Positions 2,570 to 60,709 of a stretch of DNA of 64,000 bases are shown here, piece after piece. The DNA comes from Amycolatopsis suaedae (GTDB lineage Bacteria > Actinomycetota > Actinomycetes > Mycobacteriales > Pseudonocardiaceae). The stretch covers positions 248,001 through 312,000 of the forward strand of contig NZ_SFCC01000001.1 of assembly GCF_004214935.1 (NCBI RefSeq), given 5' to 3'. Below the pieces are notes generated by a model. The model was not told the origin of the DNA and did no database searches. It saw nothing but the letters and a program-made list of their open reading frames with translations. Each line of letters opens with the position of its first letter. The first letter of the stretch is position 1. The translations under genes and the position numbers were made by a program.

Positions 2570-3059
2570 GCCTCGCGCGAGTCGTACGTTCTCCCGCGCG
2601 AGTCGTACGTTCTGACACGCGAGTTGTACGTTCCGCAGGTGCCGGGCAAGCACGTGAAGGCCACCTTCATCACGTGAGGCGTCAGGGCCCCGGCAAAGTC
2701 CGGTCGCGGGCAGGCGAGGTGGCTGGTCTCGAGCGTGGAACTCGCGTGCCGGAACGTAGAACTCACGTGCCGGAATGCAGAACTCGCGTGCGTGAGCGCA
2801 GAACTCACCATGTGGACGCCGGTTCTCACCTCGTGCCGGTCGCCCGCGTGAACGGGCCGTTCGCGCTGTCTTGCCGGGCCGGAACGCGGGTTTCGCGTTC
2901 CTGAACACGTCATTCGCGTTCCCGAACACGACACTCACCATCCGGACCCGCGAGTCCCACCGTCGTGCACGCGAGTCCCACGCTCCGGCACGCGAACTCC
3001 ACGCTCCCGACTTTGCCGGGGCCCTGATGTGAGACGTGGTGAAGGTGGCCTTCACGTGC
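2570..3059. repeat. intergenic repeat element A, with 51-bp terminal inverted repeats and 21-bp arrays
   Basis: This 640-bp gap holds no credible gene. Three 21-bp units (2570-2590, 2591-2611, 2612-2632; core GCGAGTYGTACGTT) start directly after the stop codon. Then come two 51-bp arms, 2650-2700 and 3009-3059, which are inverted repeats matching at 45 of 51 positions. Between the arms are 21-bp units in one orientation on the left (core GAACTCGCGTGCCGGAA) and the opposite orientation on the right (core GCACGCGAGTCCCACG), so the whole element can fold back on itself. Its left interior matches element E and its right interior matches element C, so it looks like a mosaic. No transposase is present. 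Confidence 0.8.
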
Positions 3060-3212
3060 TTTGTGCGGACCGGGCGGCGGCGGGGTGTCACGGGAGCGTC
3101 CTGCCGTTAGCAAGTCGTTGTCCGCAAGGTTAAGCGGTATACGATCGTCCTGTTCACCGCGTGCATCCGGTGCCGTACTGTTCGTGGGCACACGAACGGA
3201 TGTGAGGTCTTG

Positions 3213-4439
3213 GTGGGGGATGGTGTGCGGCGCACGGCGACCTTCCGGGAGACGTTCGCCGTGGGCGAGTTCCGCGCACTCTGGTTCGCCGAGCTGCAGT
3301 CGGTCTTCGGCGATCAGCTCGCCAGGGTCGCGCTGTCGGTGCTGGTGTTCGAGCGGACGTCCTCGGCCACCTGGCCCGCGCTGACCTACGCCCTGACCTA
3401 CCTTCCCGACCTCTTCGGCGGCCCGCTGCTGGGCGGGCTGGCCGACCGGCTGCCACGCCGCCAGGTCATGGTGACCACCGACGTGCTGCGGGCCCTCCTG
3501 GTCGGCCTGATGGCGGTGCCGAACCTGCCGCTGCCGGTGCTGGCCGGGGTGCTGATCCTGGTCCGGCTGCTCAACGCCCCGTTCAACGCGGCGCAGGCGG
3601 CCGTGCTGCCCAACATCCTCGACGGCGACCGCTACCTGCTCGGCCAGTCGGTACGTCAGGTGACCAGCCAGGCCGGGCAGCTGGCCGGGTTCGCCGCGGG
3701 CGGGGTGGTGGTCGCCCTCATCGGGCCGAACCGGGCGCTCGCCGTCGACGCGCTGACGTTCGCGGTGTCGGCGCTGGTGATCCGGCTGGGCCTGCGGGAC
3801 CGGCCCGCCGCCGGCTCGGCGGCACAGGGCGAGACCACCACGCTGCGCAGGCTGGCCGCGGGCGCGCGGACCATCTGGCGCGATCCGCGCCTGCGTTCGC
3901 TGGTGTCGCTGGCCTGGCTGGCCGGATTCGTGATCGTGCCCGAGGGGCTGGCCGTTCCCTACGCCGACGAGATCGGCGGGGGGCCGGTGACTGCGGGCCT
4001 GCTGCTGGCCGCGCATCCGGCCGGCATCGTCATCGGTGCCTTCGTGCTGGGCCGGTTCGTGCCTCCCGAGCTGCGCCTGCGGCTGGTCGGCATCCTCGCC
4101 GTCGGCGCGGTCGTGCCACTGCTGGCGTACTTCTTCCGGCCCGGTGTGGCGGTGACCTGTGCCCTGCTGCTGCTCTCCGGCATGTGTGCGTCGTACCAGG
4201 TCACGGCAAGCGCGACGTTCATGCGGCTGGTACCCGACGCGGAACGCGGGCAGGCGTTCGGCCTGGCCGGATCCGGCCTGATCGCGGTGCAGGGCATCGG
4301 TCTGCTGGTGGGGGGAGGGCTGGCCGCGGTGCTCGAGTCACCCGCGGTGACGGTGGGGGTGGTGGCTGCTGCCGGTGTGCTCGCGGCGGTGCCGGCTGCA
4401 GCCTCCTGGCGGAACGCGCTCCGCCATCACCCACTGTAG
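3213..4439 (+). CDS. MFS transporter (DHA3-type efflux-like)
   Basis: About 408 residues with some 12 hydrophobic segments. The first segment follows ETFAVGEFRALWFAELQSVFGDQLARVAL, which resembles the N-terminus of the MefA/DHA3 drug efflux group. GGLADRLPRRQVMV between segments 2 and 3 matches the major facilitator loop signature. Such proteins export drugs or small metabolites by proton antiport; the substrate is not deducible. The start is uncertain: GTG at 3213 follows GAGG, but GTG 3225 is also possible. It stands alone between element A and the diguanylate cyclase. Confidence 0.88.
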   Translation: MGDGVRRTATFRETFAVGEFRALWFAELQSVFGDQLARVALSVLVFERTSSATWPALTYALTYLPDLFGGPLLGGLADRLPRRQVMVTTDVLRALLVGLMAVPNLPLPVLAGVLILVRLLNAPFNAAQAAVLPNILDGDRYLLGQSVRQVTSQAGQLAGFAAGGVVVALIGPNRALAVDALTFAVSALVIRLGLRDRPAAGSAAQGETTTLRRLAAGARTIWRDPRLRSLVSLAWLAGFVIVPEGLAVPYADEIGGGPVTAGLLLAAHPAGIVIGAFVLGRFVPPELRLRLVGILAVGAVVPLLAYFFRPGVAVTCALLLLSGMCASYQVTASATFMRLVPDAERGQAFGLAGSGLIAVQGIGLLVGGGLAAVLESPAVTVGVVAAAGVLAAVPAAASWRNALRHHPL

Positions 4440-4481
4440 CGACGGATTTTGTCGGTCCGTCGTCCTATGATGAAAAGATCA

Positions 4482-4517
4482 CCAGTTCTGCCCACGAAGC
4501 GTCCAGTTCTGTCCACG
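4482..4517. repeat. two direct repeats 21 bp apart upstream of the GGDEF gene
   Basis: CCAGTTCTGCCCACG (4482-4496) recurs as CCAGTTCTGTCCACG (4503-4517), 14 of 15 identical, with a 21-bp period that puts both on the same DNA face. A GGTGATCACC palindrome follows at 4521-4530. The 185-bp gap between the MFS and GGDEF genes is otherwise AT-richer than its surroundings. Possible tandem operator; no regulator is known. Confidence 0.45.
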
Positions 4518-4624
4518 CATGGTGATCACCTCCCTTCGATAAGGTCGGCAAACGAGTTAAACCGCAACGCGACTGCTCCAGATGGCCGCGTGACAGGACG
4601 TGAACATTCGGTTACGTTGCCACA

Positions 4625-5953
4625 ATGGACGGGGGAGCGGACATGAAGGGTGCTGGTGGCCAACGTGCCCCCGGGCTATTCGGCCTGCGTGCCGTGTCCG
4701 GGTGGGGTCTGTGGCGGCTGCGGTGGGGGCTCATCGCATACGTCCTAGTCATCGATCTCGCGGCCCTGGCGGGGGCGGTGTGGGCGCTTGTCGAGGTTCC
4801 GGTCGAAGCTGGAAATCTCTTTCCATTCATCGTCCTGGTCATCTGCAGTGTCCTCTATACCGAGATGTCCCGCCCGATCGAAAAGCTGCGAGAACGTTAT
4901 TCGGTGACACCTCACATCGACCTCCAGTCGGTGTGGATGTTCGCTGCGGTGGTGACCATTCACCCCGCCTTGGCGGCCGGGGTCATCACGGCATCGTACT
5001 TCTACCGTTGGCTGCGCGTGCAGCGCAATCCGCTCTACAGGAGGACGTTCAGCACCGCCGCCACGATCGTCTGTGGGTATCTGGCGGTCGGCTTCCTCTC
5101 GCTTGTCACCGGTTTGCCACTCGCGGAGACGACCCGCGACGTTCCCGGTTTTCTCGCGCTCGTCGGTGCCGGTCTGCTTTTCCTGATCGTCAATACTGTG
5201 ACGTTGACTGTCGCGGTGTACTTCGGCAGCCCGCACGTCAGCCTGCGTACCGCGCTCGGGTCGTTCTCCGACTACAGCCTCGAGGCCGCGACGATCGGCC
5301 TCGGCATTCTGCTCGGCTGGGCGCTGGACGAATGGCCGGTCGCGTTGCTGCTGATCGTCGGGATCACGCTGGTGCTGCATCGCAGTGTGCTGGTGCGCCA
5401 GCTGCGCGAGCAGGCGCGGTCGGACCGCAAGACCGGGCTGCTCAACGCCGAGGCGTGGGCCGACGCCGCCCGCGCCGAGCTGGCCCGGGGCGAGCAGCTC
5501 AAGCACAGCAGCGGGCTGCTGGTGCTCGACCTGGACTTCTTCAAGAAGGTCAACGACACCCACGGCCACCTCGCCGGCGACGACGTGCTGCGGGCCACCG
5601 CCGCGACGCTGCAGGCCGAGGTCCGCGCGGGTGACCTGGTCGGCCGGTTCGGCGGCGAGGAGTTCGTCGTCCTGCTGCCCAACATCGGTCAGGCCGAGGC
5701 CGTGGCGATCGCCGAGCGGATCCGCAGGCGGGTCGGCGCCACGGCGGTCCCGCTGACCCAGGGCGGTGACGGCCCGGCCGACATCACGGTCACCGTGTCG
5801 ATCGGCGTGGCCTCGCACCCCAAGGACGCCAGCTCGCTGGAAGCCCTGATGCAGGCCGCGGACACGGCGCTGTACCAGGCGAAGGCCGCGGGCCGGAACC
5901 GGACGCTGCTCTACGTCGCACCGGACGAAGGTGGCTTGCGGGCGGTCGGCTAG
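4625..5953 (+). CDS. membrane-bound diguanylate cyclase (GGDEF domain)
   Basis: A 442-residue protein with an N-terminal half of about six to eight transmembrane segments (residues 30-250) and a C-terminal GGDEF domain (about 265-430). The active-site motif is GGEEF at residues 343-347, so the enzyme should convert two GTP to cyclic di-GMP. An RAGD sequence at 334-337 is exactly five residues before it, matching the RxxD inhibitory I-site, so product inhibition is expected. DLDFFKKVNDTHGH is the usual metal/GTP loop. No EAL domain is attached. The N-terminal membrane sensor is of unknown type. Direct repeats upstream may be operators. Confidence 0.93.
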   Translation: MDGGADMKGAGGQRAPGLFGLRAVSGWGLWRLRWGLIAYVLVIDLAALAGAVWALVEVPVEAGNLFPFIVLVICSVLYTEMSRPIEKLRERYSVTPHIDLQSVWMFAAVVTIHPALAAGVITASYFYRWLRVQRNPLYRRTFSTAATIVCGYLAVGFLSLVTGLPLAETTRDVPGFLALVGAGLLFLIVNTVTLTVAVYFGSPHVSLRTALGSFSDYSLEAATIGLGILLGWALDEWPVALLLIVGITLVLHRSVLVRQLREQARSDRKTGLLNAEAWADAARAELARGEQLKHSSGLLVLDLDFFKKVNDTHGHLAGDDVLRATAATLQAEVRAGDLVGRFGGEEFVVLLPNIGQAEAVAIAERIRRRVGATAVPLTQGGDGPADITVTVSIGVASHPKDASSLEALMQAADTALYQAKAAGRNRTLLYVAPDEGGLRAVG

Positions 5954-5957
5954 TCCA

Positions 5958-6443
5958 CTAGTCCACTGTGGACGGATCGACGCCGATGTCCTCGTACCAG
6001 AGCTCGGGATGCTCGTCGATGAACCGCGCCATCAGGGCGGCGCAGTGCGGGTCGTTGACGATGGTGATGTCGACGCCCGCGCGGGCCAGCCAGGCGTGCC
6101 CGCCGGAGAACGTCGTCGCCTCGCCGATCACCACCCGCGGGATGGCGAACTGGCGCACCAGGCCGCTGCAGTACCAGCACGGCGACAGCGTCGTCACCAT
6201 CACCGTGTCGCGGTAGTGCGGCCGCCTGCCAGCCGCGCGGAACGCCGCGGTCTCCGCGTGCAGTGACGGGTCACCGTCCTGGACGCGCCGGTTGTGCCCG
6301 CGCCCGAGCAGTTCCCCGTCCGTGGTGAACAACGCGGCGCCGATCGGGATCCCGCCCTCGGACTGGCCGAGCAACGCCTCCTCGCGGGCGACGGCGAGCA
6401 GGCCGGCGGCGTCGGTGGTGGTCATCCGCACAGGGTCTCGCAT
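5958..6443 (-). CDS. cytosine deaminase-like nucleoside deaminase (yeast Fcy1 type)
   Basis: A 161-residue zinc deaminase of the CDA fold. The zinc site is H62-A-E64 and P88-C89-W-Y-C92 (numbered from the longer start). Unlike bacterial CodA, it resembles the small fungal cytosine deaminase throughout: GGIPIGAALF, LLGRGHNRRVQ, LSPCWYC, IPRVVIGE and the C-terminal ELWYEDIGVD tail. Cytosine to uracil is the likely reaction, but related bacterial proteins act on other amino-substituted rings. A second ATG at 6425 could be the true start; ribosome binding sites are weak for both. The gene is divergent from the 6484 gene. Confidence 0.87.
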   Translation of the reverse strand: MRDPVRMTTTDAAGLLAVAREEALLGQSEGGIPIGAALFTTDGELLGRGHNRRVQDGDPSLHAETAAFRAAGRRPHYRDTVMVTTLSPCWYCSGLVRQFAIPRVVIGEATTFSGGHAWLARAGVDITIVNDPHCAALMARFIDEHPELWYEDIGVDPSTVD

Positions 6444-6483
6444 CCGGGCGGGCGATGGCTACGCTTGACCGCGGAGGTGTCAG

Positions 6484-6831: not shown

Positions 6832-6926
6832 CCTTCGCCATCGCGACCGGTGCGGCGGCCGTGGGAACCGTCGCGCGTCCGGTAGCGTCCCCTCTCCACC
6901 AGCTAACTGTGACATGGAGGGGTGAA

Positions 6927-7250: not shown

Positions 7251-7254
7251 CACC

Positions 7255-8271
7255 ATGGCACTGACCGACCTCGGGCCGAAGGACATGCAGGCGCTCTACG
7301 ACCGGGTGGCGCCGAAGATCCGGGCGGAGTTCCCGCACGACAACGACAGCATCTCCAACGAGGAGATCGGGATCCTGATCCCGATGAACGAGTGGCTCAA
7401 GTACGCGCTCGACGGTGACGTGGAGCTGTTCGCCGCACCCGGTGCCACCGACCCGGACGGGGCGCTGTTCCACAAGCGCAAGGCGTTCACCGACGCCAGG
7501 GCCACCCTGCAGACGATCCGGACGAAGGTCACCTCGCACTGGGCGGGGGAGGCGTCCGATCAGTTCGACAAGTACCTCAGCCTGGTGGAGACGCACCTCG
7601 ACCACTTCATCGGCGACGGGACGTCGGCGTCCAACCCCGTCGGCTACCTTCCGCAGGCCTCGGCCGTGCTGGACATGATCTTCGCGGTGGAGGTGGCGTT
7701 CAAGAACGACCTCCGGGAGCTGGTGCTCTCCGCCGAGAAGGCCGTCGAGCGGATGGACGACGTCGCCGTCGACTACCGGCCCGCGCTGATCTTCTGCGGC
7801 AAGCTGGCGCTGATCGTCGCCAAGCAGATCCCGAAGGCCGACCTGGTGATCGAGGTGGCCCAGTTGATGTGGGAGACGGCGGACATGCCGTCGCTGGAGG
7901 CCGGAACGCCGAACGGCCCCGGGGAGCGCGTCGAGATCACCGGCCGCCTGATCATCGACGTCATGCGGTCCTTCTACCAGGCTCTGACGCAGGTGGTCGA
8001 GGGCTACCAGGCGAGCCTGGCCGCCCTGCACAAGCACCTCGACGACGTGCTGGAGTTCGTCGACGACGCGAAGCTGTCGGAGCTGTCGCTCAGCGACGTC
8101 GTCCCCAAGTGGCCCGACCACGAGGGCAAGTCGCTCAAGGACCTGCTCTCGCTCGGCGAGACCCTGGAGGTCCCGGAGATCAACGACCGCGCCGCCGAGG
8201 AGAAGGCGCCGCCGATGCCCAGGGAGAAGGAGGAGCCCGCCGGCCCGCCCGGCGGCCCGGGGCCGCGCTGA
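7255..8271 (+). CDS. large WXG-like helical protein, possible type VII secretion substrate
   Basis: A 338-residue, almost wholly helical protein, starting at ATG 7255 four bases after the upstream stop. VTSHWAGEASDQFDKYLSLV (about residues 91-110) contains a W-x-G turn as in WXG100 proteins, followed by long helices. The C-terminus is proline-rich and charged (EEPAGPPGGPGPR) with no enzymatic domain. Proteins of this layout are found as long ESX substrates or immunity/partner proteins; here the assignment rests on the motif and the neighbour. The last 28 bp of the gene and stop region are duplicated downstream at 8559-8586. Confidence 0.72.
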   Translation: MALTDLGPKDMQALYDRVAPKIRAEFPHDNDSISNEEIGILIPMNEWLKYALDGDVELFAAPGATDPDGALFHKRKAFTDARATLQTIRTKVTSHWAGEASDQFDKYLSLVETHLDHFIGDGTSASNPVGYLPQASAVLDMIFAVEVAFKNDLRELVLSAEKAVERMDDVAVDYRPALIFCGKLALIVAKQIPKADLVIEVAQLMWETADMPSLEAGTPNGPGERVEITGRLIIDVMRSFYQALTQVVEGYQASLAALHKHLDDVLEFVDDAKLSELSLSDVVPKWPDHEGKSLKDLLSLGETLEVPEINDRAAEEKAPPMPREKEEPAGPPGGPGPR

Positions 8272-8586
8272 CGGCCTTCACCCGAACGACGGCCGCCCAC
8301 GTGTCCGCTGGTCCCGCAATCTGGAATCGGTGTGCCGGACAGTGGGACCGGGTGGACGGGAACGTGCAACTCGCGGGTCCGGAACGGACAACTCGCGCCC
8401 CAGAACGTACGACTCGCGCGTCAGAACCTACGACTCGCGCGAACGGGCCGTTCACGCGGGCGACCAGCGCCACGTGATAACCCGGTCCACATCGTGAGTT
8501 CTGCGCTCAGGACCGCGAGTTCTACGTTCCGGTACACGAGTTCTGCGCTCGAGACCAGCCCGGCGGTCCGGGGCCGCGCTGACGGC
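8248..8586. repeat. intergenic repeat element B between 28-bp direct repeats
   Basis: The 402-bp gap before the P450 gene holds element B (about 8315-8558). It has 21-bp units (8383-8403, 8404-8424, 8425-8445; core ACTCGCG) on the left and the reversed core (CGAGTTCTACGTTCC) on the right, about 80% like element D and like the reverse complement of element E. It lacks the 51-bp arms. The end of the upstream gene (8248-8275) is repeated at 8559-8586 with 27 of 28 bases the same, so the element sits between direct repeats as if inserted with target duplication or mobilised by recombination. Confidence 0.75.
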
Positions 8587-8592
8587 AGAAAG

Positions 8593-8666
8593 CTGCCCGT
8601 CGATGTGGATGGGCAGGTTCCGTTTCGCTACGGTGGAACCGGAACAGTTTCCTCCACATCGACGGG
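8593..8666 (+). promoter_or_regulatory. structured dyad leader before the P450 gene
   Basis: A perfect 14-bp inverted repeat, CCCGTCGATGTGGA (8596-8609) and TCCACATCGACGGG (8653-8666), has its right arm on the GGGAG ribosome binding site of the P450. A competing hairpin CTGCCC/GGGCAG (8593-8598, 8611-8616) shares the left arm. A third pairing GGTTCC/GGAACC lies at 8616-8621 and 8635-8640. It may be an attenuator-like RNA leader. If the TACGGT near 8629 is a -10 box, it is instead a DNA dyad across the promoter. Confidence 0.5.
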
Positions 8667-8673
8667 AGCAGCC

Positions 8674-9876
8674 GTGACCGAGGTCGCCGATCCCCAGTTC
8701 CCCATGGCCCGTTCGTGCCCGTTCTCGCCGCCCGCGCAGTACGCCGGCCTGCGCGAGCGGGCGCCGGTGTCGAAGGTGAGCCTGCCGTCGGGCAGGCAGG
8801 CCTGGGCGGTGACGCGCCACGACGAGCTACGGGCCATGCTCACCGACACGCGGTTCAGCTCCGACCGCACCAACCCGGACTTCCCTTATCTGGTCAAGGA
8901 GAGGCCCAAGAACGACAACAGGTTCCCGCCGACCATGATCTCCATGGACGCGCCCGAGCACACCGCGGCGCGGCGGGCCGTCGTCGGGGAGTTCACCGTG
9001 CGCCGGATGGAGGCGCTGCGGCCGAGGATCCAGCAGATCGTCGACGAGCACCTGGACGCCATGCTGGCCGGCCCGAAGCCCGCCGACCTGGTGCGGGCGC
9101 TGTCGCTGCCGGTGCCGTCGCTGGTGATCTGCGAGCTGCTCGGCGTTCCCTACGGCGACCACGAGTTCTTCCAGGCCAGCAGTTCCAGGCTGCTGGACCG
9201 CGGGGAGAGCGCCGAGGAACGCGACGAGGCCGTGCGCGGCCTGATGAACTACCTCGACGAGCTGGTCACCGCCGCCGAGGCCGAGCCGGGTGACAACCTG
9301 ATCGGCAGGCAGGTGCGCAAGCAGCGCGAGGAGGGTACCCGGGACCATCGTGGCCTGGTCGGCATGGCGTTCCTGCTGCTGATCGCCGGCCACGAGACGA
9401 CGGCGAACATGATCTCGCTGGGCACGCTGGCCCTGCTGGAGCACCCCGACCAGCTGGCGCTGCTGCGGGAGGACCGCGGCCGCACCCTGGGCGCGGTCGA
9501 GGAACTGCTGCGGTACTTCACGATCGCCGAGACCGCCGTGTCACGGGTGGCCGTGGCCGACACCGAACTGGGTGGCGTCACGATCAGGGCGGGCGAGGGT
9601 GTCCTCGGGCTCGGCAACGCCGCCAACCGCGACCCCGCGGCGTTCCCGGACGCCGACCGGCTCGACATCACCCGCTCGGCACGGCACCACGTGGCATTCG
9701 GCTTCGGGGCTCATCAATGTCTTGGCCAGAATCTGGCAAGGTTGGAGTTGCAGATCGTGTTCGACACCCTGTTCGATCGGGTGCCGGGGCTGCGGCTGGC
9801 CGCGACGCTGGAGGAGTTGCCGTTCAAGGACGACTCCACCGTCTACGGCCTGCACGAGCTTCCGGTGACCTGGTAG
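8674..9876 (+). CDS. cytochrome P450
   Basis: A 400-residue soluble bacterial P450. The I-helix oxygen-binding motif is AGHETT (238-243), the K-helix ExxR is E277-L-L-R280, and the haem loop is FGFGAHQCLG with the axial Cys349. The length and the LVICELLGVPYGDHEFFQ region match the CYP105-like actinomycete class, which hydroxylates drugs, herbicides or secondary metabolites. GTG 8674 is the best start because longer versions would read through element B. The ferredoxin gene follows after 8 bp and is its likely electron donor. No ferredoxin reductase is nearby. Confidence 0.95.
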   Translation: MTEVADPQFPMARSCPFSPPAQYAGLRERAPVSKVSLPSGRQAWAVTRHDELRAMLTDTRFSSDRTNPDFPYLVKERPKNDNRFPPTMISMDAPEHTAARRAVVGEFTVRRMEALRPRIQQIVDEHLDAMLAGPKPADLVRALSLPVPSLVICELLGVPYGDHEFFQASSSRLLDRGESAEERDEAVRGLMNYLDELVTAAEAEPGDNLIGRQVRKQREEGTRDHRGLVGMAFLLLIAGHETTANMISLGTLALLEHPDQLALLREDRGRTLGAVEELLRYFTIAETAVSRVAVADTELGGVTIRAGEGVLGLGNAANRDPAAFPDADRLDITRSARHHVAFGFGAHQCLGQNLARLELQIVFDTLFDRVPGLRLAATLEELPFKDDSTVYGLHELPVTW

Positions 9877-9884
9877 GAGGACCC

Positions 9885-12146: not shown

Positions 12147-12156
12147 GACATCATTG

Positions 12157-14680: not shown

Positions 14681-15304
14681 ATGACCAGGGCGAGCACCCG
14701 CAAGGCAGGCGCGGAGCGCGACGGCGACGAGGGTCAGGCGGCTGTTCCGCTGCGCCTGCTCTCGGTCGCCACGAAGCTGTTCGCGAAGCAGGGGTTCGAC
14801 CGGACGTCGGTGCAGGAGATCGTCGAGGCCGCCGGCGTCACCAAGGGCGCGATGTACCACTACTTCGGCTCCAAGGACGACCTGCTGTACGAGATCTACG
14901 GCCGGGTGCTGCGGGAGCAGACCGAGCAGCTGGAGCGCCTGCTGGCCACCGAGGCGCCGCTGCGGGAACGGCTCAGCGCGGCCGCGTCCGACGTCGTGGT
15001 GAGCACGATCGCCAACCTCGACGACGCGACGATCTTCATGCAGTCGATGCACCACCTCAGCCCGGAGAAGCAGCGCAGTGTGCGCGCCGAGCGGCGCCGC
15101 TACCACGAGCGGTTCCGTTCGATGATCGAGGAGGGGCAGGCGTCCGGGGAGTTTCGCGCCGACAAGCCCGCCGACGTGATCATGGACTTCTTCTTCGGCG
15201 CCGTGCACCACCTCGGCTCGTGGTACCGCCCGAGCGGCAGCCTGTCGGCGCAGCAGGTCGGCGACCACTACGCCGACCTGCTGCTGTCCGCCTTACGTCC
15301 CTGA
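14681..15304 (+). CDS. TetR/AcrR family transcriptional regulator
   Basis: A 207-residue regulator with helix-turn-helix LLSVATKLFAKQGFDRTSVQ, then IVEAAGVTKGAMYHYFGSKD (residues about 26-68), like fatty-acid/acyl-CoA responsive TetR proteins of the FadR/KstR2 style. Its C-terminal domain has several His and Met residues (IFMQSMHHLSPEK). It ends the 12-15 kb plus-strand run and converges on the acyl-CoA dehydrogenase operon. Element C lies between them. Motif 1 or the nearby acyl-CoA dehydrogenase promoter is a possible target (inference). Confidence 0.92.
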   Translation: MTRASTRKAGAERDGDEGQAAVPLRLLSVATKLFAKQGFDRTSVQEIVEAAGVTKGAMYHYFGSKDDLLYEIYGRVLREQTEQLERLLATEAPLRERLSAAASDVVVSTIANLDDATIFMQSMHHLSPEKQRSVRAERRRYHERFRSMIEEGQASGEFRADKPADVIMDFFFGAVHHLGSWYRPSGSLSAQQVGDHYADLLLSALRP

Positions 15305-15328
15305 ACTTGTCGCCGCACCGGACGGCCC

Positions 15329-15633
15329 AAAGCTCGTGAAGGCCACCTTCATTACGTCTCACGTGCTGAAGGTGGCCTTCACGTGCTTGGACGGCCGCTG
15401 GTCCCGGCGGGAGGTGCGCGCGAGCGTGGGACTCGCGTGCCGGAAGGTGGAGTTCGCGTGCGCGAGGGTGGAGTTCACCAGGTGAGACAGCCGCCTCACC
15501 ACGCGGGCACGCGAGTCCCACCGTCATGCACGCGAGTTCCACGTTCCAGCACGCGAACTCCACCGTCCCGCACCACGACTCCCGACTTTGCGGGACCCTG
15601 ACGTCTCACGTGCTGAAGGTGGCCTTCGCGTGC
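15329..15633. repeat. intergenic repeat element C
   Basis: The 354-bp gap between two convergent genes begins with a hairpin at 15329-15389. Its 20-bp arms at 15332-15351 and 15367-15386 pair through TGAAGGTGGCCTTCA. Then come 21-bp-type units in opposite orientations (left core GACTCGCGTGCCGGA, right core GCACGCGAGTTCCACG) and a second full 50-bp arm at 15584-15633. The hairpin is 59/61 identical to that of element E at 60302-60362. It has no U-tract, so it is not a classic rho-independent terminator, but it could stop or process both transcripts. Confidence 0.75.
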
Positions 15634-15658
15634 TTGGCGCGGGACCGGCGGACGAGCG

Positions 15659-16732
15659 CTAGGCCGGGAGGTCCACCAGGGTGGCCAGGCGGCGGCGGTG
15701 CGCGCCGGGGGTGCCCAGGGCGATCTGGTCGCTCTTCGCCCGCTTCAGGTACAGGTGCGCCGGGTGCTCCCAGGTCATGCCGATGCCGCCGTGCAGCTGC
15801 ACGCATTCCTCGGCCGCGTGCACGGCCACGTCGGAACACCTGGCCTGGGCCAGCGCCGCCGCCACCGCGACGTCGTCGCTGCCGGTGGCCACGGCGTCGG
15901 CCGCGTAGCGGGCCGTCGCCCGCGCCGCCACGACGTCCAGCCAGACGTCGGCCAGCCGGTGCTTGAGCGCCTGGAACGACCCGACCGGCCGTCCGAACTG
16001 GTAGCGCTGCTTGACGTAGCGCACCGTCTCCTCCAGGCACCACTGCGCGATCCCCAGCTGCTCCGACGCCAGCAGCGCGGCACCGGCGGTCAGCGCACCG
16101 TCCACAGCGGACACCGCGGCTTCGCCGGAGAGCACCGGGGTCGCCGCCGCACCGTCGAACGTCACGTCCGCCAGCCTGCGGGTCAGGTCCAGCGGGGTCA
16201 CCTCGGTGACCGTGACCGCCGACGCCTCCACCGCGTACAGCGCCGGACCCTCCACCGGCACCAGCAGCACGTCGGCCACCGTCGCGTCGGCGACCGTGCT
16301 CACCCGGCCGGTCAGCCGGTCACCCTCGGCCCGCACCGTGGCGGGAAAACCGCCCGGCGCGGTCGACAGCGGAACGGCCAGCGTGCCGATCGCCTCCCCG
16401 GTGGCCAGCCTGCGCAGCAGGTCACCCTCGGGCAGCGCCAGGGTGGCCAGCACGGCGCTGCCCAGGAACGGCACCGGCGCGAGCGCACGGCCCAGCTCTT
16501 CGAGCACCAGCGCGGTCTCCCGCACCGACGCGCCCTGACCGCCGCAGGCCTCGGCCACCGGCAGGCCGGCCACGCCCAGGTCGACCGCCAGCGTCCGCCA
16601 GAGCTTGCGGTCGTAGGGCTCGTCACCCTCGATCCGGCCCAGCAGCGTGTCCGGCGCGCACCGGTCGGTGAGCAGGTCACGCACGCTGGCCCGCAGGTCC
16701 TCCTCGACGTCGCTGTAGCGCAGGTCGGTCAT
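15659..16732 (-). CDS. acyl-CoA dehydrogenase, partner-subunit type
   Basis: A 357-residue acyl-CoA dehydrogenase family protein. It has YSDVEEDLRASVRDLL at the N-terminus, the FAD/middle domain, and the C-terminal QLHGGIGMTWEHPAHLYLKR motif. Short subunits of this type usually pair with a longer acyl-CoA dehydrogenase as alpha2beta2 heterotetramers in actinobacterial side-chain degradation. Its ATG at 16732 overlaps the stop of the upstream acyl-CoA dehydrogenase by 4 bp (ATGA), which supports pairing. It is the last gene of the minus-strand operon. Oxidation of a branched or steroid-like acyl-CoA is possible but not proved. Confidence 0.92.
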   Translation of the reverse strand: MTDLRYSDVEEDLRASVRDLLTDRCAPDTLLGRIEGDEPYDRKLWRTLAVDLGVAGLPVAEACGGQGASVRETALVLEELGRALAPVPFLGSAVLATLALPEGDLLRRLATGEAIGTLAVPLSTAPGGFPATVRAEGDRLTGRVSTVADATVADVLLVPVEGPALYAVEASAVTVTEVTPLDLTRRLADVTFDGAAATPVLSGEAAVSAVDGALTAGAALLASEQLGIAQWCLEETVRYVKQRYQFGRPVGSFQALKHRLADVWLDVVAARATARYAADAVATGSDDVAVAAALAQARCSDVAVHAAEECVQLHGGIGMTWEHPAHLYLKRAKSDQIALGTPGAHRRRLATLVDLPA

Positions 16733-25859: not shown

Positions 25860-26030
25860 ACTCCGCACGCCCGGTAGCCCCACCAGTCACCCCGAACGAG
25901 ACGACATCGGGTCAATGCCACCGCTACGAACGGCACCGTGGTAGCGCAACGCGCAACCAAGGTGCCCTTGGCAGCACCCCGGAAGCCCGACCACCCGACT
26001 TTGCCGGGGCCCTGGCACCTGACGTGCCTT
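25860..26030. repeat. intergenic repeat element G (half element)
   Basis: The 174-bp gap between convergent genes holds one arm only. GACTTTGCCGGGGCCCTG at 25997-26014 matches the arms of A, D and F but ends at 26030, against the stop codon of the GH2 gene. The preceding 70 bp (25928-25977, containing ACCAAGGTGCCCTT) resemble the interior of element F at 60589-60637 rather than the 21-bp arrays. Confidence 0.65.
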
Positions 26031-44135: not shown

Positions 44136-44487
44136 GCACGTGAAGGCCACCTTCCTGCCCGGTCGGCCAGGCGAGGACAGGACTGGTCTCGCGATCTGGA
44201 CCCGGCACGCCAAGCAGTGGGACCAGACAGGCGGGAACGTGCAACTCGCGGGTCCGGAACGGTCGACTCGCGGGTCGGGAACGGAGGACTCGCGCGAACG
44301 GGCCGGTCGCGTGAGCGACCGGCACCGGGTGAGAACCTGGTCCACATCGTGAGTTCTGCGCTCACGCACGCGAGTTCTACGTTCCGGCACGCGAGTTCTA
44401 CGCTCGGGACCAGCCACCTCGCCCTGCCCACACCTGGACTTTGCCGGGGCCATGACGTGTGACGTGCTGAAGGTGGCCTTCACGTGC
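44136..44487. repeat. intergenic repeat element D
   Basis: The 510-bp gap between two same-strand glycosidase genes holds no gene. The element runs from GCACGTGAAGGCCACCTTC at 44136-44154 to a full 51-bp arm at 44437-44487. Its interior has 21-bp-type units in both orientations (44236-44296 and 44343-44410) and is about 80% like element B, and like the reverse complement of E. It lies downstream of GH43 and upstream of the GH29 promoter. Confidence 0.75.
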
Positions 44488-44510
44488 TTGGCGCGGGACA
44501 GGAGCCGGGA

Positions 44511-51927: not shown

Positions 51928-51928
51928 C

Positions 51929-55648: not shown

Positions 55649-55670
55649 CAGTCCGGAAAGGACGGTTGAC

Positions 55671-56909
55671 GTGACGTTGTCAGGGAAGATCGCGGCCGCC
55701 TGCGTGCTCGTGCTGGCCTGCACGCAGGCGGTTCCCGCCGCCGCGGCCGAACCGGCCCCCACGCCGCCGCTGGGCTGGAATTCGTGGAACACCTTCGGCT
55801 GCGACATCAACGAACAGCTGATCCGCGACACCGCGGATTCGATGGTGTCGTCCGGGATGGCCCGCGCCGGTTACCGGTACGTGGTGATCGACGACTGCTG
55901 GTTCGATCCGCAGCGTGCCGCCGACGGCAGCCTGCGGGCGCACCCGCAACGGTTTCCCAGCGGTATCAAGGCACTGGCCGACTACATCCACGGCAAGGGC
56001 CTGAAGTTCGGCATCTACCAGGTGCCGACCGAGAAGACCTGCGCGCAGCGCGGTGGCGCCTACCCGGGCGCCACCGGCAGCAGGGGACACGAGGTGCGCG
56101 ACGCCCGCACGTTCGCCGAGTGGGGCGTGGACTACCTCAAGTACGACTGGTGCTCGCCGGAGGGCACGCTGGCCGACCAGATCGCGGCGTTCACCGTGAT
56201 GCGGGACGCGCTGCGGTCCACCGGCCGCGACATCGTCTACAGCATCAACGCCAACAGCTACCACGACGAGAAGAACGGCGCGAAGTACGACTGGTCCGCG
56301 ATCGCCGACCAGTGGCGCACCACCGAGGACATCAAGCCGGTGTGGCGCACCGGCAACCCCAACACCTATCCGATGGGCGTCACCGACATCATCGACGTCA
56401 CCGAGCCGCTGCGGGACTGGGCGGGGCCGGGGCACTGGAACGACCCGGACATGCTCGAGGTCGGGGTGTACAACGTGGAAGGCTTCCCCGGCCTGACCGA
56501 CACCGAGGCCAGGGCGCACTTCAGTATGTGGGCCATGCTGGCTGCGCCGATGATCGCGGGCAACGACCTGCGGGCCATGCCGGGCGAAATCAGGAAGATC
56601 CTCACCAACCGCGGCGTGCTGGCGGTCAGCCAGGACCGCCGCGGCGTCGCCGCCGACCGGGTACGCGACGACGGCGACCTGGAGGTCTGGGCCCGGCCGC
56701 TGGCCGGCGGTGACGTCGCGGTGGCGTTGTTCAACCGGTCCGAGCGGGCCGCGCGGATCACCGCGCGGACCGGGGAAGTGGGGCTGCGCCCGGGTCCGCA
56801 CCTGGTCACCGACCTGTGGACCGGGCGGAAGTCGGTGAGCCGGGGCGAGTTGTCGGCGGAGGTGCCGGTACACGGGGTGGTACTGCTGCGGGTGCGGCCG
56901 CTGACGTGA
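55671..56909 (+). CDS. secreted alpha-galactosidase, GH27
   Basis: A 412-residue secreted enzyme with a signal peptide (KIAAACVLVLACTQAVPAAAA). PPLGWNSWNTFGCDIN is the GH27 start, VIDDCWFD follows, KYDWC holds the nucleophile D159 and HWNDPDML the acid/base D260. A small C-terminal beta domain completes it. It would release alpha-linked galactose, e.g. from galactomannan or raffinose. It starts at GTG 55671 after GGAAAGGA, 22 bp after the GH2 gene; the two are co-transcribed for galactose-containing glycans. Confidence 0.94.
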   Translation: MTLSGKIAAACVLVLACTQAVPAAAAEPAPTPPLGWNSWNTFGCDINEQLIRDTADSMVSSGMARAGYRYVVIDDCWFDPQRAADGSLRAHPQRFPSGIKALADYIHGKGLKFGIYQVPTEKTCAQRGGAYPGATGSRGHEVRDARTFAEWGVDYLKYDWCSPEGTLADQIAAFTVMRDALRSTGRDIVYSINANSYHDEKNGAKYDWSAIADQWRTTEDIKPVWRTGNPNTYPMGVTDIIDVTEPLRDWAGPGHWNDPDMLEVGVYNVEGFPGLTDTEARAHFSMWAMLAAPMIAGNDLRAMPGEIRKILTNRGVLAVSQDRRGVAADRVRDDGDLEVWARPLAGGDVAVALFNRSERAARITARTGEVGLRPGPHLVTDLWTGRKSVSRGELSAEVPVHGVVLLRVRPLT

Positions 56910-56970
56910 GGCTGGTCCGCGCGGCGGGTCACTGGCAGTATCGGACCGACCACGACGTCGAGGAGGATTC

Positions 56971-57447
56971 GTGACCGGCGAGGAGATCGTGCTGGGGCCC
57001 CTGCCCAAGGGGATCACGCTCGCGGGCGAGGGCATGCGGAGCAAGGTGTGGAACGTGCTCGGGCACACCTACTCCATGAAGGCGTCGAGCGAGTCGAGCT
57101 TCGCCTTCGAGACCTACGACCCACCGGGCACCGGCGTGCCACCACACGTCCACCCCACCCAGGACGAGCACATCTACGTGCTGGACGGTGTGTTCACGCT
57201 GTACCTGGACGGCCAGTGGGAGACCGCCGGGCCCGGTGACACCGTGCGGATGCCGAAGGGCCTGCCGCACGCGTACTACAACCGCAGCGAGGCGCCCACC
57301 CGCGCGTTGTTCTGGGTGAGCCCGGCGGGACGGCTGGCGGAGCTGTTCGACCGGCTGCACGACCTCGACGACCTGGAGGAGGCTGTGCGCCGGTCGGCCG
57401 AGTGCGACGTGAACTTCCTGCCGCCCGGTTCGGTGGACGGTGCCTGA
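56971..57447 (+). CDS. cupin domain protein
   Basis: A 158-residue single-cupin protein. PPHVHPTQDEHIYVLDGVFTL and GPGDTVRMPKGLPHAYYN are cupin motifs 1 and 2, with metal ligands in HVH, E and H. Function could be as an isomerase, dioxygenase or sensor. It starts at GTG 56971 after AGGAGGATTC and overlaps the NCS1 permease gene by 8 bp, so the two are co-expressed. Confidence 0.87.
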   Translation: MTGEEIVLGPLPKGITLAGEGMRSKVWNVLGHTYSMKASSESSFAFETYDPPGTGVPPHVHPTQDEHIYVLDGVFTLYLDGQWETAGPGDTVRMPKGLPHAYYNRSEAPTRALFWVSPAGRLAELFDRLHDLDDLEEAVRRSAECDVNFLPPGSVDGA

Positions 57448-58807
57448 GGCCGCCATCGAGCGGCGTTCCATCGACCCGGTTCCCGAGGCCGAGCGGCACG
57501 GGCACCCCCGGAGCCTGTTCACGCTGTGGTTCGCGGCGAACATGCAGATCACCGCCGCGGTGACCGGGGCGCTGACGGTGCTGGTCGGCGTGCACCCGTT
57601 GTGGGCGCTGGTCGCTGTCGTGCTGGGCAACGCGCTGGGCGGCGTGCCGATGGCGTTGCACGCCGCCCAGGGGCCGCGGCTGGGCATCCCGCAGATGATC
57701 CAGTCGCGGGCGCAGTTCGGCGTCTACGGCGCCGTGCTGCCGTTGCTGCTGGTCGTCGTGATGTACCTGGGCTACTTTGCCAGCGGCAACGTGCTCGGCG
57801 GGCAGGCGGTCGCCCAGATCACCGGCCTGCCGACCGACGTGGCGATCGTGGGCTACGCCGCCGCGTCGGCGGCGATCGCGGTCGTCGGCTACCGGCTGAT
57901 CCACCGGTTCGGCTGGGTGGCCTCGGCGTTGTCGGTGGTCGTGTTCGTGTACCTGAGCGTCCGGCTGGTCGGTGGCCACGACCTCGGCGCGGTGCTCGCC
58001 GAGCCGCGGCTGGACCTGCCCAAGTTCCTGCTGGCGTTGTCGCTGACCGCGTCCTGGCAGCTGACGTTCGGCCCGTACGTGGCCGACACCTCGCGGTACC
58101 TGCCTGCCACGACGTCGGTGCGGTCGACGTTCTGGTGGACCTACGGCGGTACCGTCCTCGGCGCGGCCTGGGCCATGTCGTTCGGCGCGCTCGCCTACGC
58201 CGTCGCGGGCAACGCGTTCAAGGGCCGCGAGGTGGCCTACATCGTCGGGCTCGGGGGAGAGGCGCTGGTCGTCCCGCTGCTGCTGGCGATCGCGCTGGGC
58301 AAGTTCACCGTCAACGTGCTCAACATCTACGGCGGCTACATGACGGTCGCCACCACGCTGACCGCCGTCAGCAGGAAGGTGGCGCTCTCGCAGGCGGCGC
58401 GGATCGGCTACATCGCGGCGGTCGGGGTGCTCGGTGGCGTGATCGCGGTGCTGGGCCGCGGTGAGTTTCTCGGCAACTTCGTGCTGTTCCTGCACTTCCT
58501 GCTGTACTTTCTCACCCCGTGGAGTTCGATCAACCTGGTCGACTTCTACCTGGTGCGCAAGGAACGTTACGACCTGGACGCCATCTACGACCCGGGCGGC
58601 CGCTACGGCCGCTGGGCGGCACCGGCGTTGCTCGCCTACGTCGCCGGCATGCTGGTCCAGGTGCCGTTCTCCAATGTGGACGGTGTGTACGTCGGCGTGC
58701 TGGTCGGGCTGCTGGGCGGGGCCGATCTGGCGTGGGTGCTCGGACTGGTCGTGCCCGGTGTGCTGTACGCCGTGCTGATGCGCCGGTCTAGGGAGCGGGA
58801 TTGGTGA
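57440..58807 (+). CDS. NCS1-type purine/cytosine permease
   Basis: A 455-residue transporter with about 12 membrane helices. SLFTLWFAANMQITAAVTGA, RLGIPQMIQSRAQFGVYGAV, GPYVADTSRYLPATTSVRSTF and FLTPWSSINLVDFYLVRKE are characteristic of the NCS1 family that imports nucleobases, hydantoins or thiamine precursors with sodium or protons. The GTG 57440 overlaps the cupin gene. The cupin may act on the imported substrate (inference). It overlaps the next gene on the other strand by 20 bp. Confidence 0.93.
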   Translation: MPEAAIERRSIDPVPEAERHGHPRSLFTLWFAANMQITAAVTGALTVLVGVHPLWALVAVVLGNALGGVPMALHAAQGPRLGIPQMIQSRAQFGVYGAVLPLLLVVVMYLGYFASGNVLGGQAVAQITGLPTDVAIVGYAAASAAIAVVGYRLIHRFGWVASALSVVVFVYLSVRLVGGHDLGAVLAEPRLDLPKFLLALSLTASWQLTFGPYVADTSRYLPATTSVRSTFWWTYGGTVLGAAWAMSFGALAYAVAGNAFKGREVAYIVGLGGEALVVPLLLAIALGKFTVNVLNIYGGYMTVATTLTAVSRKVALSQAARIGYIAAVGVLGGVIAVLGRGEFLGNFVLFLHFLLYFLTPWSSINLVDFYLVRKERYDLDAIYDPGGRYGRWAAPALLAYVAGMLVQVPFSNVDGVYVGVLVGLLGGADLAWVLGLVVPGVLYAVLMRRSRERDW

Positions 58808-59885
58808 CGAGGGGGTGCAGGGCGGCGTCGAAGGCGGCGTCGTCCGGGGGTGTCTCGTAGTCGCTGCTGCGGTCCGAGTCCGGGTTCACCATGATCCGCG
58901 GCGAGCAGCCGGGTTCCGGCATGGTCCCGTCGGCGGGGAAGGAGTGGACCGGGCGGCCGGTACGGGCCTCGTACACCTCGACCTGCCAGCGGCCCTGGGA
59001 GGACGACGTCGAGTAGCCGCCCGAGTAGGAACAGCTCTTCGAGCCGCTGTCGTTGGTCCCGACCAGGCGGGCGCATGCCACGAGCTGCAGTTCCGTGGCC
59101 GGCGGCCAGCGCTCGTCGCTCTCGGCGAAACCGGCCGTGTGCTCGGGGTAGGAGTCCTCGCTGTCGGTGCCGAGGAAGACGGCCACCGGGTGCGGCCCGG
59201 GGCCGGTGTATTCGGCGGCGCGGCCGAACGGCTCGCCGCCGAAGCACATCCGGCCGAAGTCCTTGATGTGGTGTGGTGGCCGTCCCGCCACCAGGTTCAC
59301 CGTCTCGGGCAGAATGGCGAACCAGAGGGCGGCGGCCGCGGCGATGCCGGTGGTGGCGCGGAGTGCGACCCGTCCCTTGGACAGCGGCAGGAGCGGGCCG
59401 CCCTGGCGGACGGCGCGGAGCAGGTCGTCGTGCCTGCTCATCGAGGGGACAGGGAGGACCTGCCGTTCGCCGTCCTCGGTCCACACCAGTTCCTGGCGGG
59501 TGTTCGGCACCGTTCCCACAATCCGCAGGGACAGCCGGTCCCACGGAACGGGTGTCGGGCTGACGTCGAGCCCGGTCTGCCAGACCACCAGCCCGCCCTC
59601 GGCGACGGCGAGGTAGTGCCTGCCCTCCAGGCTGGCCACCGGGCCCCAGCGCAGCCAGAGCAGGCCGAGGCACAGCAGCGCGGCCCAGCCGACGATCGGC
59701 AGCCGCCAGTACGGCGTGTCCTCCAGCAGCAGCGGAAGCACCGAGATGGCGGCGGGCACGGAGGTCAGCGTCAGCAGCGTGATCACCGCGGCCAGGCTGC
59801 TGTACTGGTAGTGGATCCGGACGACCCTGCCGAAACCCGCCTGCTCCGCCGCCTCGGTGAGCAGCCGCCGTGGTCTGCTGGTCAC
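58788..59885 (-). CDS. membrane protein with PH-like cytoplasmic region, unknown
   Basis: A 365-residue protein. It has two N-terminal membrane helices (SLAAVITLLTLTSVPAAISV and WAALLCLGLLWLRWGPVAS), a PH-like beta stretch (GLVVWQTGLDVSPTPVPWDR), a third helix around residue 180, and an extracytoplasmic C-terminal part with paired Cys (MCFGGEPFG, CARLVG, SCSYSGGYS). I do not recognise a family. It converges on the NCS1 gene and starts 80 bp before element E. Confidence 0.72.
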   Translation of the reverse strand: MTSRPRRLLTEAAEQAGFGRVVRIHYQYSSLAAVITLLTLTSVPAAISVLPLLLEDTPYWRLPIVGWAALLCLGLLWLRWGPVASLEGRHYLAVAEGGLVVWQTGLDVSPTPVPWDRLSLRIVGTVPNTRQELVWTEDGERQVLPVPSMSRHDDLLRAVRQGGPLLPLSKGRVALRATTGIAAAAALWFAILPETVNLVAGRPPHHIKDFGRMCFGGEPFGRAAEYTGPGPHPVAVFLGTDSEDSYPEHTAGFAESDERWPPATELQLVACARLVGTNDSGSKSCSYSGGYSTSSSQGRWQVEVYEARTGRPVHSFPADGTMPEPGCSPRIMVNPDSDRSSDYETPPDDAAFDAALHPLVTNPAP

Positions 59886-59964
59886 TACTCATTCATACCT
59901 CACCGGCACCGGGACCCGTCCCGGTTGGCACACTCCTGCCGGACTCCGCGCCCCCTGGTGCCGG

Positions 59965-60362
59965 TGCCGTGAAGGTGCCCCCACGGCATGAGACGCCAGG
60001 GTCCGGCAAAGGTCCGGTGGCGGGCAGGCGAGGTGGCTGGTCTCGAGCGTGGAACTCGCGTGCCGGAACGTAAAACTCGCGTGCCGGAATGCAGAACTCG
60101 CGTGCGTGAGCGCAGAACTCACCATGTGGATCGGGTTCTCACGTGGTGCCGCCGGTCGCCCGCGCGACTGGGCCGTTCGTGCGAGTCCTCCGTTCCCGAC
60201 CCGCGAGTCGACCGTTGCGGACCCGCGAGTTGCACGTTCCCGTCCGCCTGGTCCCACTGTCCGGCACGCCGGTTCCAGACGGCGAGACACCGGCCCTGGG
60301 TAAAGCTCGTGAAGGCCACCTTCATTACGTCTCATGTGGTGAAGGTGGCCTTCACGTGCTTG
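59965..60362. repeat. intergenic repeat element E
   Basis: In the 852-bp gap between two minus-strand genes. A degenerate left arm lies at 59965-60014. Four exact 21-bp units (60049-60069, 60070-60090, 60091-60111, 60112-60132; core GAACTCGCGTGCCGGAA) are followed by reversed units. The right end is a hairpin at 60302-60362 with 20-bp arms, 59/61 identical to element C. The interior is the reverse complement of B and D. Confidence 0.78.
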
Positions 60363-60471
60363 TGCCCGACGTGCGAGGGTCTCGTTCGTGGTGGCCGGTG
60401 GGACTGCTGAGCGCGTTGTGCCTGTTGTGCACGTTGTGCTCGCCGAGGCGGCGGGAGCCGGGCCGGGAAGC

Positions 60472-60709
60472 GCATGAAGGCCACCTTCATCAAGTCAGAC
60501 GACAGGAACTCGGCCTTCACACCAACCCAGCTGACCGGCCACCACAACGGCACCGCCGGTCACACGAACGAGACCCCACACTCGCAGCCAACGGCACCAT
60601 CCTGGCGAATCTCGCCACCAAGGTGCCCTTCGCAGCAGCGCTGCGGCCGCGGTCACCGGACTTTGCCGGGACCCTGACGTCTCATGTGATGAAGGGGGCC
60701 TTCACGTGC
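60472..60709. repeat. intergenic repeat element F
   Basis: A second element 110 bp after E. A short left arm with TGAAGGCCACCTTCA is at 60475-60489, and a full 51-bp right arm at 60659-60709. The interior differs from the 21-bp arrays and instead matches element G (ACCAAGGTGCCCTT). The gap between E and F has three 9-bp GTTGTGC-type repeats near 60413-60439. Confidence 0.72.

What the first reader, a model, noticed from the sequence alone, without database searches (positions are those of the whole stretch)
2570..60709. Family of seven non-coding elements made of 51-bp arms and 21-bp unit arrays
Seven intergenic elements (A 2570-3059, B 8315-8558, C 15329-15633, D 44136-44487, E 59965-60362, F 60472-60709, G 25860-26030) share two building blocks. 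One is a 51-bp arm: GACTTTGCCGG(G)GCCCTG near one end and TGAAGGTGGCCTTCA near the other. The other is an array of 21-bp units (core GAACTCGCGTGCCGGAA or its complement). In A-E the two halves are inverted, so an RNA of the element folds into a long hairpin. Sequence conservation between copies is high while no open frame is conserved. They resemble MITE or BIME/REP families, but 21-bp units giving same-face binding sites are not usual for those. Seven in 64 kb is dense. I know no named family with this layout.
Basis: partly seen in the sequence, partly recalled or inferred. Interest (0 to 1): 0.85.

Follow-up and report, generated by a model that had tools for sequence, protein, structure and literature searches.

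The report
Hairpin-homing mini-transposons carrying repeat arrays
In what is likely an Amycolatopsis bacterium, most of the seven repeated blocks are gene-less mini-transposons or their remnants, mostly joined to halves of hairpins that are common just after genes and often carrying 21-base repeats that recur at gene ends in many genomes of the family; the hairpins likely help to end transcripts, and the repeats would serve as docking sites for a still unknown protein.

Summary
A is a complete ISAs1-type MITE in a hairpin centre; C-F keep one TIR end with a half-hairpin flank; G keeps a TIR only; B has neither. The genome has 220 TIR-like places and no detected ISAs1 transposase. Hairpin-centre insertion is also seen in three other Amycolatopsis genomes with other centre sequences; full-length relatives examined sit at non-palindromic sites. 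The hairpins favour convergent gaps (23 of 42) over divergent ones (0 of 106), show two-sided stem changes, and no RAYT was found in 20 genomes. The 21/22-bp units are a separate repeat: 70 of 297 family genomes (18 genera), 8 of 391 outside. They also occur without MITEs near gene 3' ends, with strict period and no covariation between facing halves, which favours a DNA-level role. Known kind (MITE in a REP-like hairpin) with new features: ISAs1 family, hairpin-centre preference, and a family-wide 3'-end array not found in my paper searches. Function is inferred.

The parts
2574..2633 (-). Stand-alone 21-bp array (3 units) directly after the stop codon at 2569, outside MITE A
2648..2671 (.). 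Element A: left half of the host hairpin (palindrome 2655-2669)
2672..2682 (.). Element A: left target duplication ACGTGAGGCGT
   Evidence: 11 bp, 2 mismatches to the right copy
2683..3026 (.). Element A: complete ISAs1-type MITE, 344 bp, TIRs 2683-2700 and 3009-3026 (both 0 mismatches), inverted 21-bp arrays 2738-2806 (+) and 2936-3007 (-)
3027..3061 (.). Element A: right target duplication ATGTGAGACGT (3027-3037) and right half-hairpin (palindrome 3040-3054)
8308..8560 (.). Element B: MITE interior cassette without TIRs or hairpin; arrays 8360-8441 (+) and 8496-8550 (-)
   Evidence: tandem gap 8271-8674
15329..15389 (.). Intact (empty) twin-palindrome hairpin, spacer 15 nt, loop CTC; 65-nt segment folds at -45.6 kcal/mol, z -10.0
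   Evidence: palindrome starts 32 bp after the upstream stop codon, convergent gap 15304-15659
15390..15628 (.). Element C: MITE remnant; arrays 15418-15476 (+) and 15507-15573 (-), degenerate right TIR 15584-15600, 11-bp flank ACGTCTCACGT 15601-15611, half-hairpin palindrome 15614-15628 (1 mismatch)
25860..26025 (.). Element G: second MITE subtype (no array), right TIR 25997-26014, no TGAAGG-N3-CCTTCA palindrome in the right flank; between convergent stop codons 25854 and 26029
44136..44490 (.). Element D: left palindrome 44141-44155 (1 mismatch), left TIR lost, arrays 44244-44294 (+) and 44351-44405 (-), right TIR 44437-44454, 11-bp flank 44455-44465, half-hairpin palindrome 44468-44482
59965..60290 (.). 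Element E: left half-palindrome of another hairpin type (by eye), degenerate left TIR 59997-60014, arrays 60053-60120 (+) and 60181-60242 (-), right TIR lost
60302..60362 (.). Intact (empty) twin-palindrome hairpin; 65-nt segment folds at -46.3 kcal/mol, z -11.1
60468..60709 (.). Element F: second MITE subtype; left palindrome 60475-60489, right TIR 60659-60676, 11-bp flank ACGTCTCATGT 60677-60687, half-hairpin palindrome 60690-60704 (1 mismatch); ends about 29 bp from the stop codon at 60738

Best explanation
A typical element is a gene-less ISAs1-type mini-transposon (MITE, 18-bp terminal inverted repeats), or its remnant, lying at the centre of a ~57-bp hairpin of a kind common just behind genes, where it was likely inserted by an ISAs1-family transposase acting in trans that was not detected in this genome. 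The MITE splits the twin palindrome in its 3-nt loop and leaves an 11-bp duplication of the loop plus 4 bp on either side. The 51-bp arm is therefore TIR + duplication + half-hairpin. Shown: TIR identity, duplications in part of the copies, empty and filled hairpins, absence of a detectable transposase, 3'-end placement, two-sided stem changes. Inferred: that the transposase prefers the hairpin tip (extruded cruciform) rather than a sequence; that the hairpins work as bidirectional transcript-end or mRNA-protecting signals, which makes them harmless landing sites; and that the 21/22-bp arrays, which also stand alone at gene ends in many genomes of the family, are phased DNA sites for a protein and were captured by the MITE.
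For: TIR: the 18-mer bounds elements of 1.28-1.67 kb in other actinomycetes. The 400-aa protein between the TIRs in L170 is an ISAs1 transposase (NF033564, E 3.4e-62; PF13808 + PF01609). Congener G141 (L188) has ISAs1 coding sequence, in two frames, between TIRs of 2 mismatches each with a perfect 10-bp duplication. Own genome: 220 TIR places, 0 ISAs1 transposases at E 0.001. Site: 46 TIR ends (up to 3 mismatches) in 800 kb own DNA; 3 in called genes dropped; of 43 left, 36 have the palindrome (up to 3 mismatches) within 40 nt, 30 of them at an offset of exactly 13 nt (11-bp duplication + 2), against 4.5-5.2% of random intergenic positions for any offset. Of 13 own L-R pairs, 7 have both half-hairpins and an 11-bp duplication (5 with 1-2 mismatches, 2 with 3-4), rejoined stem 13-16 of 18 against controls of 5.0-6.5. 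The same in G246 (3 of 8 rows: 259715, L183, L185), G231 (L176 and L178, not L177) and A. eburnea (L072), with other centre sequences. Hairpins: divergent gaps 0 of 106, convergent 23 of 42, tandem 27 of 184; G246 3 of 59, 21 of 43, 14 of 104; divergent against convergent p 2.8e-12 (C11), 2.9e-4 (C8), 4.2e-7 (G246). 12 of 27 stem pairs with two-sided changes in own, 6 of 27 in G246. The 20 orthologous gaps of C that I fetched (of 80 genomes matched) hold no hairpin of this kind, TIR or array.
Against: The palindrome arms TGAAGG..CCTTCA are shared by own, G246 and G231, so the arms could be recognised by sequence; only A. eburnea (one locus) has other arms. In G246 only 6 of 15 intergenic TIR ends (18 less 3 in genes) are flanked by the palindrome, and G246 pair 336536 has a perfect 11-bp duplication at a non-palindromic site. 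Own copies 330383 and 556937 lack the left duplication, and 430298, 537732 and 410319 have mismatched or one-sided flanks. Full-length ISAs1-TIR elements (21 rows, 17 distinct) have duplications, 10 bp, in 9 rows (6 distinct) at non-palindromic sites (stem 7.1 against control 6.6). Divergent against tandem gaps is not significant in C8 (p 0.54) and G246 (p 0.11). The longest T-run in the 20 nt after a hairpin is 1-4; no transcript data were available. Compensatory counts are between paralogous copies, not corrected for relatedness, partly from one subtype of three copies; pairs 6 and 27 pair no better than shuffled. Gene calls are from my own script. Large-scale data place ISAs1 elements in convergent gaps in general (PMC9208149, passage), which a survival bias would explain too.
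Confidence: 0.7

Rival explanations
1. The whole arm-array-arm block is one mobile element whose ends are the outer hairpin edges; the ISAs1-like TIR lies inside by descent, and the block moves or spreads by recombination between hairpins.
For: Flanking hairpin halves are very similar between copies. C, E and F have a complete or degenerate hairpin on one side and TIR plus half-hairpin on the other. Some copies lack a duplication.
Against: Hairpins without MITE in their centre are common (33 twins in 800 kb). MITEs of other sequence sit at the centre of other hairpins in other species, and MITEs outside hairpins exist (L042, L093, L187) with 10-11 bp duplications.
Confidence: 0.12
2. No homing: MITEs inserted everywhere, and only those in hairpins behind genes survived because those sites are harmless.
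For: Hairpins lie in gaps where insertions hurt least; the full-length relatives examined do not favour palindromes; ISAs1 elements are over-represented between convergent genes in general (PMC9208149, passage).
Against: 30 of 43 own ends sit at one exact offset from the palindrome, not spread over the gap; ordinary intergenic DNA is far more abundant than hairpin centres.
Confidence: 0.14
3. The hairpins have no role for the cell: they are short selfish palindromes (REP-like) that are purged from promoters, so their 3'-end placement is only what selection left.
For: Copy number varies from 0 to 1231 between congeners; no hairpin of this kind at C in the 20 orthologues examined.
Against: Tight spacing behind stop codons (median 49 bp own C11, 61 bp own C8, 42 bp G246) and two-sided stem changes are more than mere tolerance predicts; no RAYT in the 20 genomes examined, so a known mover is missing.
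Confidence: 0.35
4. The 21/22-bp arrays work as long RNA or DNA hairpins (modular terminators), not as protein sites.
For: Inverted arrays run from stop codon to stop codon in convergent gaps of G268.
Against: Facing units are no more alike than non-facing ones (0.479 against 0.494, p 0.72, 30 loci); 35 of 42 loci show units in one orientation only by the three-unit rule.
Confidence: 0.3

Closest known systems
ISAs1-family insertion sequences and MITEs derived from insertion sequences
   Same: 18-bp TIR shared with ISAs1-family elements, 10-11 bp target duplication, no transposase gene
   Different: No ISAs1 transposase detected in the genome, target is a hairpin centre, interior carries 21/22-bp arrays; the six papers listed for ISAs1 + MITE (listing) and the passages of PMC9208149 name no such element
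REP/BIME palindromes with IS targeting (IS1397, ISKpn1, IS621, ISPpu9/10, ISRm22; PMC1525189)
   Same: Repeated extragenic palindromes, often between convergent genes, used as IS targets; ISRm22 (IS4 family) sites are palindromic (PMC1525189 Discussion part 1)
   Different: That paper lists IS3, IS110, IS4, IS256 and IS5, not ISAs1; here the palindrome is a 45-nt twin with a 15-nt spacer and no RAYT was found in 20 genomes
Bidirectional intrinsic terminators
   Same: Strong hairpin usually 10-60 bp after stop codons, shared by convergent genes, absent from divergent gaps in own DNA
   Different: T-runs of 4 at most, repeated sequence family, lineage-specific at C
Prokaryotic tandem-repeat satellites (PMC6749651, passages seen)
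   Same: Short tandem units
   Different: 3-12 units, strict 21/22-bp steps, the same 7-bp core pattern found in 18 genera, gene 3' ends

Membership tests
MITE of the ISAs1 family | TIR shared with an autonomous ISAs1 element | tested here: met
   0-2 mismatches to TIRs of elements encoding NF033564 proteins
MITE of the ISAs1 family | Target duplication like that of the full elements | tested here: met
   11 bp in 7 of 13 own pairs (5 with 1-2 mismatches) and in G246, 10-11 bp elsewhere; full elements 10 bp where found
MITE of the ISAs1 family | Mobilised by an ISAs1 transposase | not testable with these tools
   No transposase detected in own genome; mobility needs an assay
REP/REPIN with RAYT | Short extragenic palindrome, high copy | tested here: met
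   253 GTGAAGGNNNCCTTCAC places in own genome, control 0
REP/REPIN with RAYT | RAYT (Y1_Tnp) in the genome | tested here: not met
   PF01797: 0 of 20 genomes including own; 5 of 14 control genomes ring
Intrinsic terminator | Stable hairpin behind stop codons | tested here: met
Intrinsic terminator | U-tract after the hairpin | tested here: not met
   longest T-run in 20 nt, better of both directions: 1-4 in 63 twins, 4 in only three
Intrinsic terminator | Transcripts end there | not testable with these tools
   no RNA data
IS110 element | IS110 transposase (PF02371) | tested here: not met
   0 in own genome; first guess from C-terminal context, dropped
Known RNA family (Rfam 15) | Match at gathering score | tested here: not met
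   0 in the window

The most novel reading that the evidence does not exclude
The 21/22-bp ACTCGCG arrays are an undescribed class of gene-3'-end DNA element spread over the Pseudonocardiaceae: helically phased docking sites for a dedicated protein that seals gene ends (termination or supercoil control). A MITE line homing by shape to hairpin tips captured these arrays and now deals them out to new gene ends.
Probability: 0.25. Interest if true: 0.82.

Novelty: new variant of a known kind. Interest (0 to 1): 0.6.

Why it matters
If the site choice is by shape, this is a natural transposition system that recognises a hairpin tip whatever its centre sequence, with ready targets from four species to test. 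The arrays would point to an unknown protein that marks the ends of genes in a large antibiotic-producing family. Both can be tested with a reporter, a pull-down and a transposition assay.

Tried and rejected
IS110 right end: the 18-mer follows transposase stop codons in many actinomycetes, which I first took for IS110; rejected after TIR pairs, the ISAs1 match and 0 PF02371 hits in own genome. RAYT-driven REP: 0 of 20 genomes. Plasmid or phage origin: no match of A in either collection. Known RNA: none at gathering score. Arrays as covarying hairpins: not supported. Single-unit 51-bp arm: disfavoured by the exact 13-nt offset and by empty hairpins.

Literature: ten searches (two searches returned nothing). 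I saw the listings (titles and starts of abstracts; 8 of 17, 10 of 421, 8 of 9), passages of PMC6749651, PMC1525189 and PMC9208149 and Discussion part 1 of PMC1525189. None of what I saw names these hairpins, MITEs or arrays; most subscription journals are not held, so this is not proof that they are unpublished. That actinobacterial hairpins without U-tract can terminate is recalled, not from a call.

Full report
What was checked. The window is C11:248001-312000 of a 7.54-Mb draft genome in 32 contigs. Its genus holds G283, whose TIR coordinates coincide with those of A. roodepoortensis contigs, so I take it to be Amycolatopsis; that is an inference.

The arm is a composite. GACTTTGCCGGGGCCCTG occurs 220 times in the genome at up to 2 mismatches (reversed control 0) and in 44 of 297 family genomes at up to 1 mismatch, often as facing pairs 0.2-0.5 kb or ~1.35 kb apart. 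L170, a ~1.4-kb pair, encodes a 400-aa ISAs1-family protein between the two ends. The 18-mer is thus a terminal inverted repeat. Outside it, in 30 of 43 intergenic ends of 800 kb own DNA (46 ends, 3 in called genes dropped), the TGAAGG-N3-CCTTCA palindrome starts at exactly 13 nt; in 6 more it lies elsewhere within 40 nt, and in 7 it is absent. At random intergenic positions it is found in 4.5-5.2%. The 11 nt next to the TIR are duplicated in A (ACGTGAGGCGT / ATGTGAGACGT). Of 13 own L-R pairs under 900 bp, 7 show such a duplication with both half-hairpins (5 with 1-2 mismatches, 2 with 3-4). The other 6 are a nested end (116667), two without left duplication (330383, 556937), and three with a mismatched or one-sided flank (410319, 430298, 537732).

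The hairpin. Without MITE it is TGAAGGCCACCTTCA - 15 nt - TGAAGGTGGCCTTCA, usually with a near-palindromic spacer. With up to 2 mismatches and G-U allowed, the stem is 22-32 pairs in 30 of 33 own twins (4, 9 and 9 in the others) and in 29 of 30 of G246 (13 in one), around a 3-nt loop. Two empty copies lie in the window (15329-15389, 60302-60362; -45.6 and -46.3 kcal/mol, z -10.0 and -11.1). Neighbouring palindromes less than 100 nt apart have a 15-nt spacer in 33 of 39 own cases and 30 of 35 in G246, the rest 49-92 nt. Centre triplets are complementary in 31 of 33 own twins and 24 of 30 in G246. Own hairpins (32 distinct) have two-sided changes at 12 of 27 pairs, 37 cells; G246 (30 distinct) at 6 of 27, 25 cells; pairs 6 and 27 of own pair no better than shuffled. 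These are paralogous copies, so relatedness is not controlled. Palindromes occur in 0 of 106 divergent, 23 of 42 convergent and 27 of 184 tandem gaps of own DNA and in 3 of 59, 21 of 43 and 14 of 104 in G246. Divergent against convergent is significant in all three sets; divergent against tandem only in C11 (p 7e-6; C8 0.54, G246 0.11). The median distance to a stop codon is 49 bp (C11), 61 bp (C8) and 42 bp (G246) (gene calls by my script). No T-run longer than 4 follows any of the 63 twins. Across 297 family genomes GTGAAGGNNNCCTTCAC is present in 71, from 1 to 1231 places, with controls of 0-1. In 20 orthologues of the convergent gap of C, chosen from the 80 genomes matched, I found no hairpin of this kind, TIR or array core. 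No RAYT was found in 20 genomes.

Targeting. MITEs sit at hairpin centres also in G246 (pair 259715, L183, L185; 3 of 8 rows), G231 (L176, L178) and A. eburnea (L072). Their centre sequences differ, but own, G246 and G231 share the TGAAGG..CCTTCA arms; only A. eburnea has other arms (TGAATGAGTCATTCA). L177 of G231, the other G246 rows (one, 336536, with a perfect 11-bp duplication) and MITEs of other genera (L042, L093, L187) are not at hairpin centres. In G246 only 6 of 15 intergenic ends are flanked by the palindrome, those 6 at offset 13. Long elements with the same TIR (21 rows, 17 distinct loci; duplications in 9 rows, 6 distinct) have 10-bp duplications and non-palindromic sites. My reading is that a transposase of an Amycolatopsis ISAs1 line, not detected here (0 hits; among 20 genomes one over the cut-off, G141, and weaker hits in G114 and G246), preferred hairpin tips. 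Survival bias and recognition of the arm sequence remain rivals.

The arrays. Strict search finds 33 arrays of 3-4 units in 800 kb own DNA (mean of scrambled controls 0); the looser first scan found 37 in 21 loci, 17 of them with a TIR within 450 bp (controls 0, 1, 0 and 7). So in this genome arrays are mostly MITE cargo. Elsewhere they are not: three exact cores at 21-22 bp steps occur in 70 of 297 family genomes and 18 of 46 genera, in many at 50-230 places (overlapping matches in longer arrays counted apart), control 0 in most (up to 12 in G041); G246 has TIRs but no array match. Outside the family 8 of 391 sampled genomes of the class have 1-11. Of 59 array loci were duplicates and 3 had no array by my rule; the remaining 42 lie in tandem (21), convergent (16), divergent (2) and undetermined (3) gaps, none in a called gene, and 27 of 39 measurable ones lie within 50 bp of a gene's stop codon. 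In stretches, gaps with arrays are 0 of 91 divergent and 5 of 36 convergent (C11, p 0.0015), 1 of 15 and 2 of 6 (C8, p 0.18), 1 of 53 and 3 of 27 (G268, p 0.11). Orientation to the gene end shows no preference (13 and 15 in C11, 5 and 8 in G268; only 4 scored in C8, all one way). In G268 inverted arrays run from stop codon to stop codon of convergent genes. Spacings of the exact core fall almost only on multiples of 21 or 22 in C11, G268 and G106. Facing units of inverted arrays are not more alike than others (0.479 against 0.494, p 0.72, 30 loci), unlike the hairpins.

Verdict. The finding is a stack of three repeats. The MITE-in-hairpin part is a new variant of a known kind (IS targeting of extragenic palindromes; PMC1525189 lists five other IS families). 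The array is the least explained and most interesting part.

Noticed in passing
L091, L125, L072, L058: A. roodepoortensis, A. sp. WAC 01376 and A. eburnea carry the TIR next to other palindrome types; A. eburnea (L072) has TGAATGAGTCATTCA arms.
   Followed up: partly
C11:330383-330774 and 556937-557328 of the own genome: Two MITEs of 392 bp whose left TIR abuts CCTTCATT with no left duplication, the spacer being present only on the right.
   Followed up: no
window 15329-15389 and 60302-60362; own C11:655816: Complete hairpin on one side of a MITE remnant whose TIR on that side is missing (C, E and F types): a recurrent one-sided configuration that simple insertion does not explain.
   Followed up: no
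G246: Congener with 1231 GTGAAGGNNNCCTTCAC places in 6.9 Mb, the highest of the 297 genomes searched.
   Followed up: partly
G691: One genome outside the family has 11 array matches with a different linker (CCCGCAACCC), perhaps an independent array.
   Followed up: no
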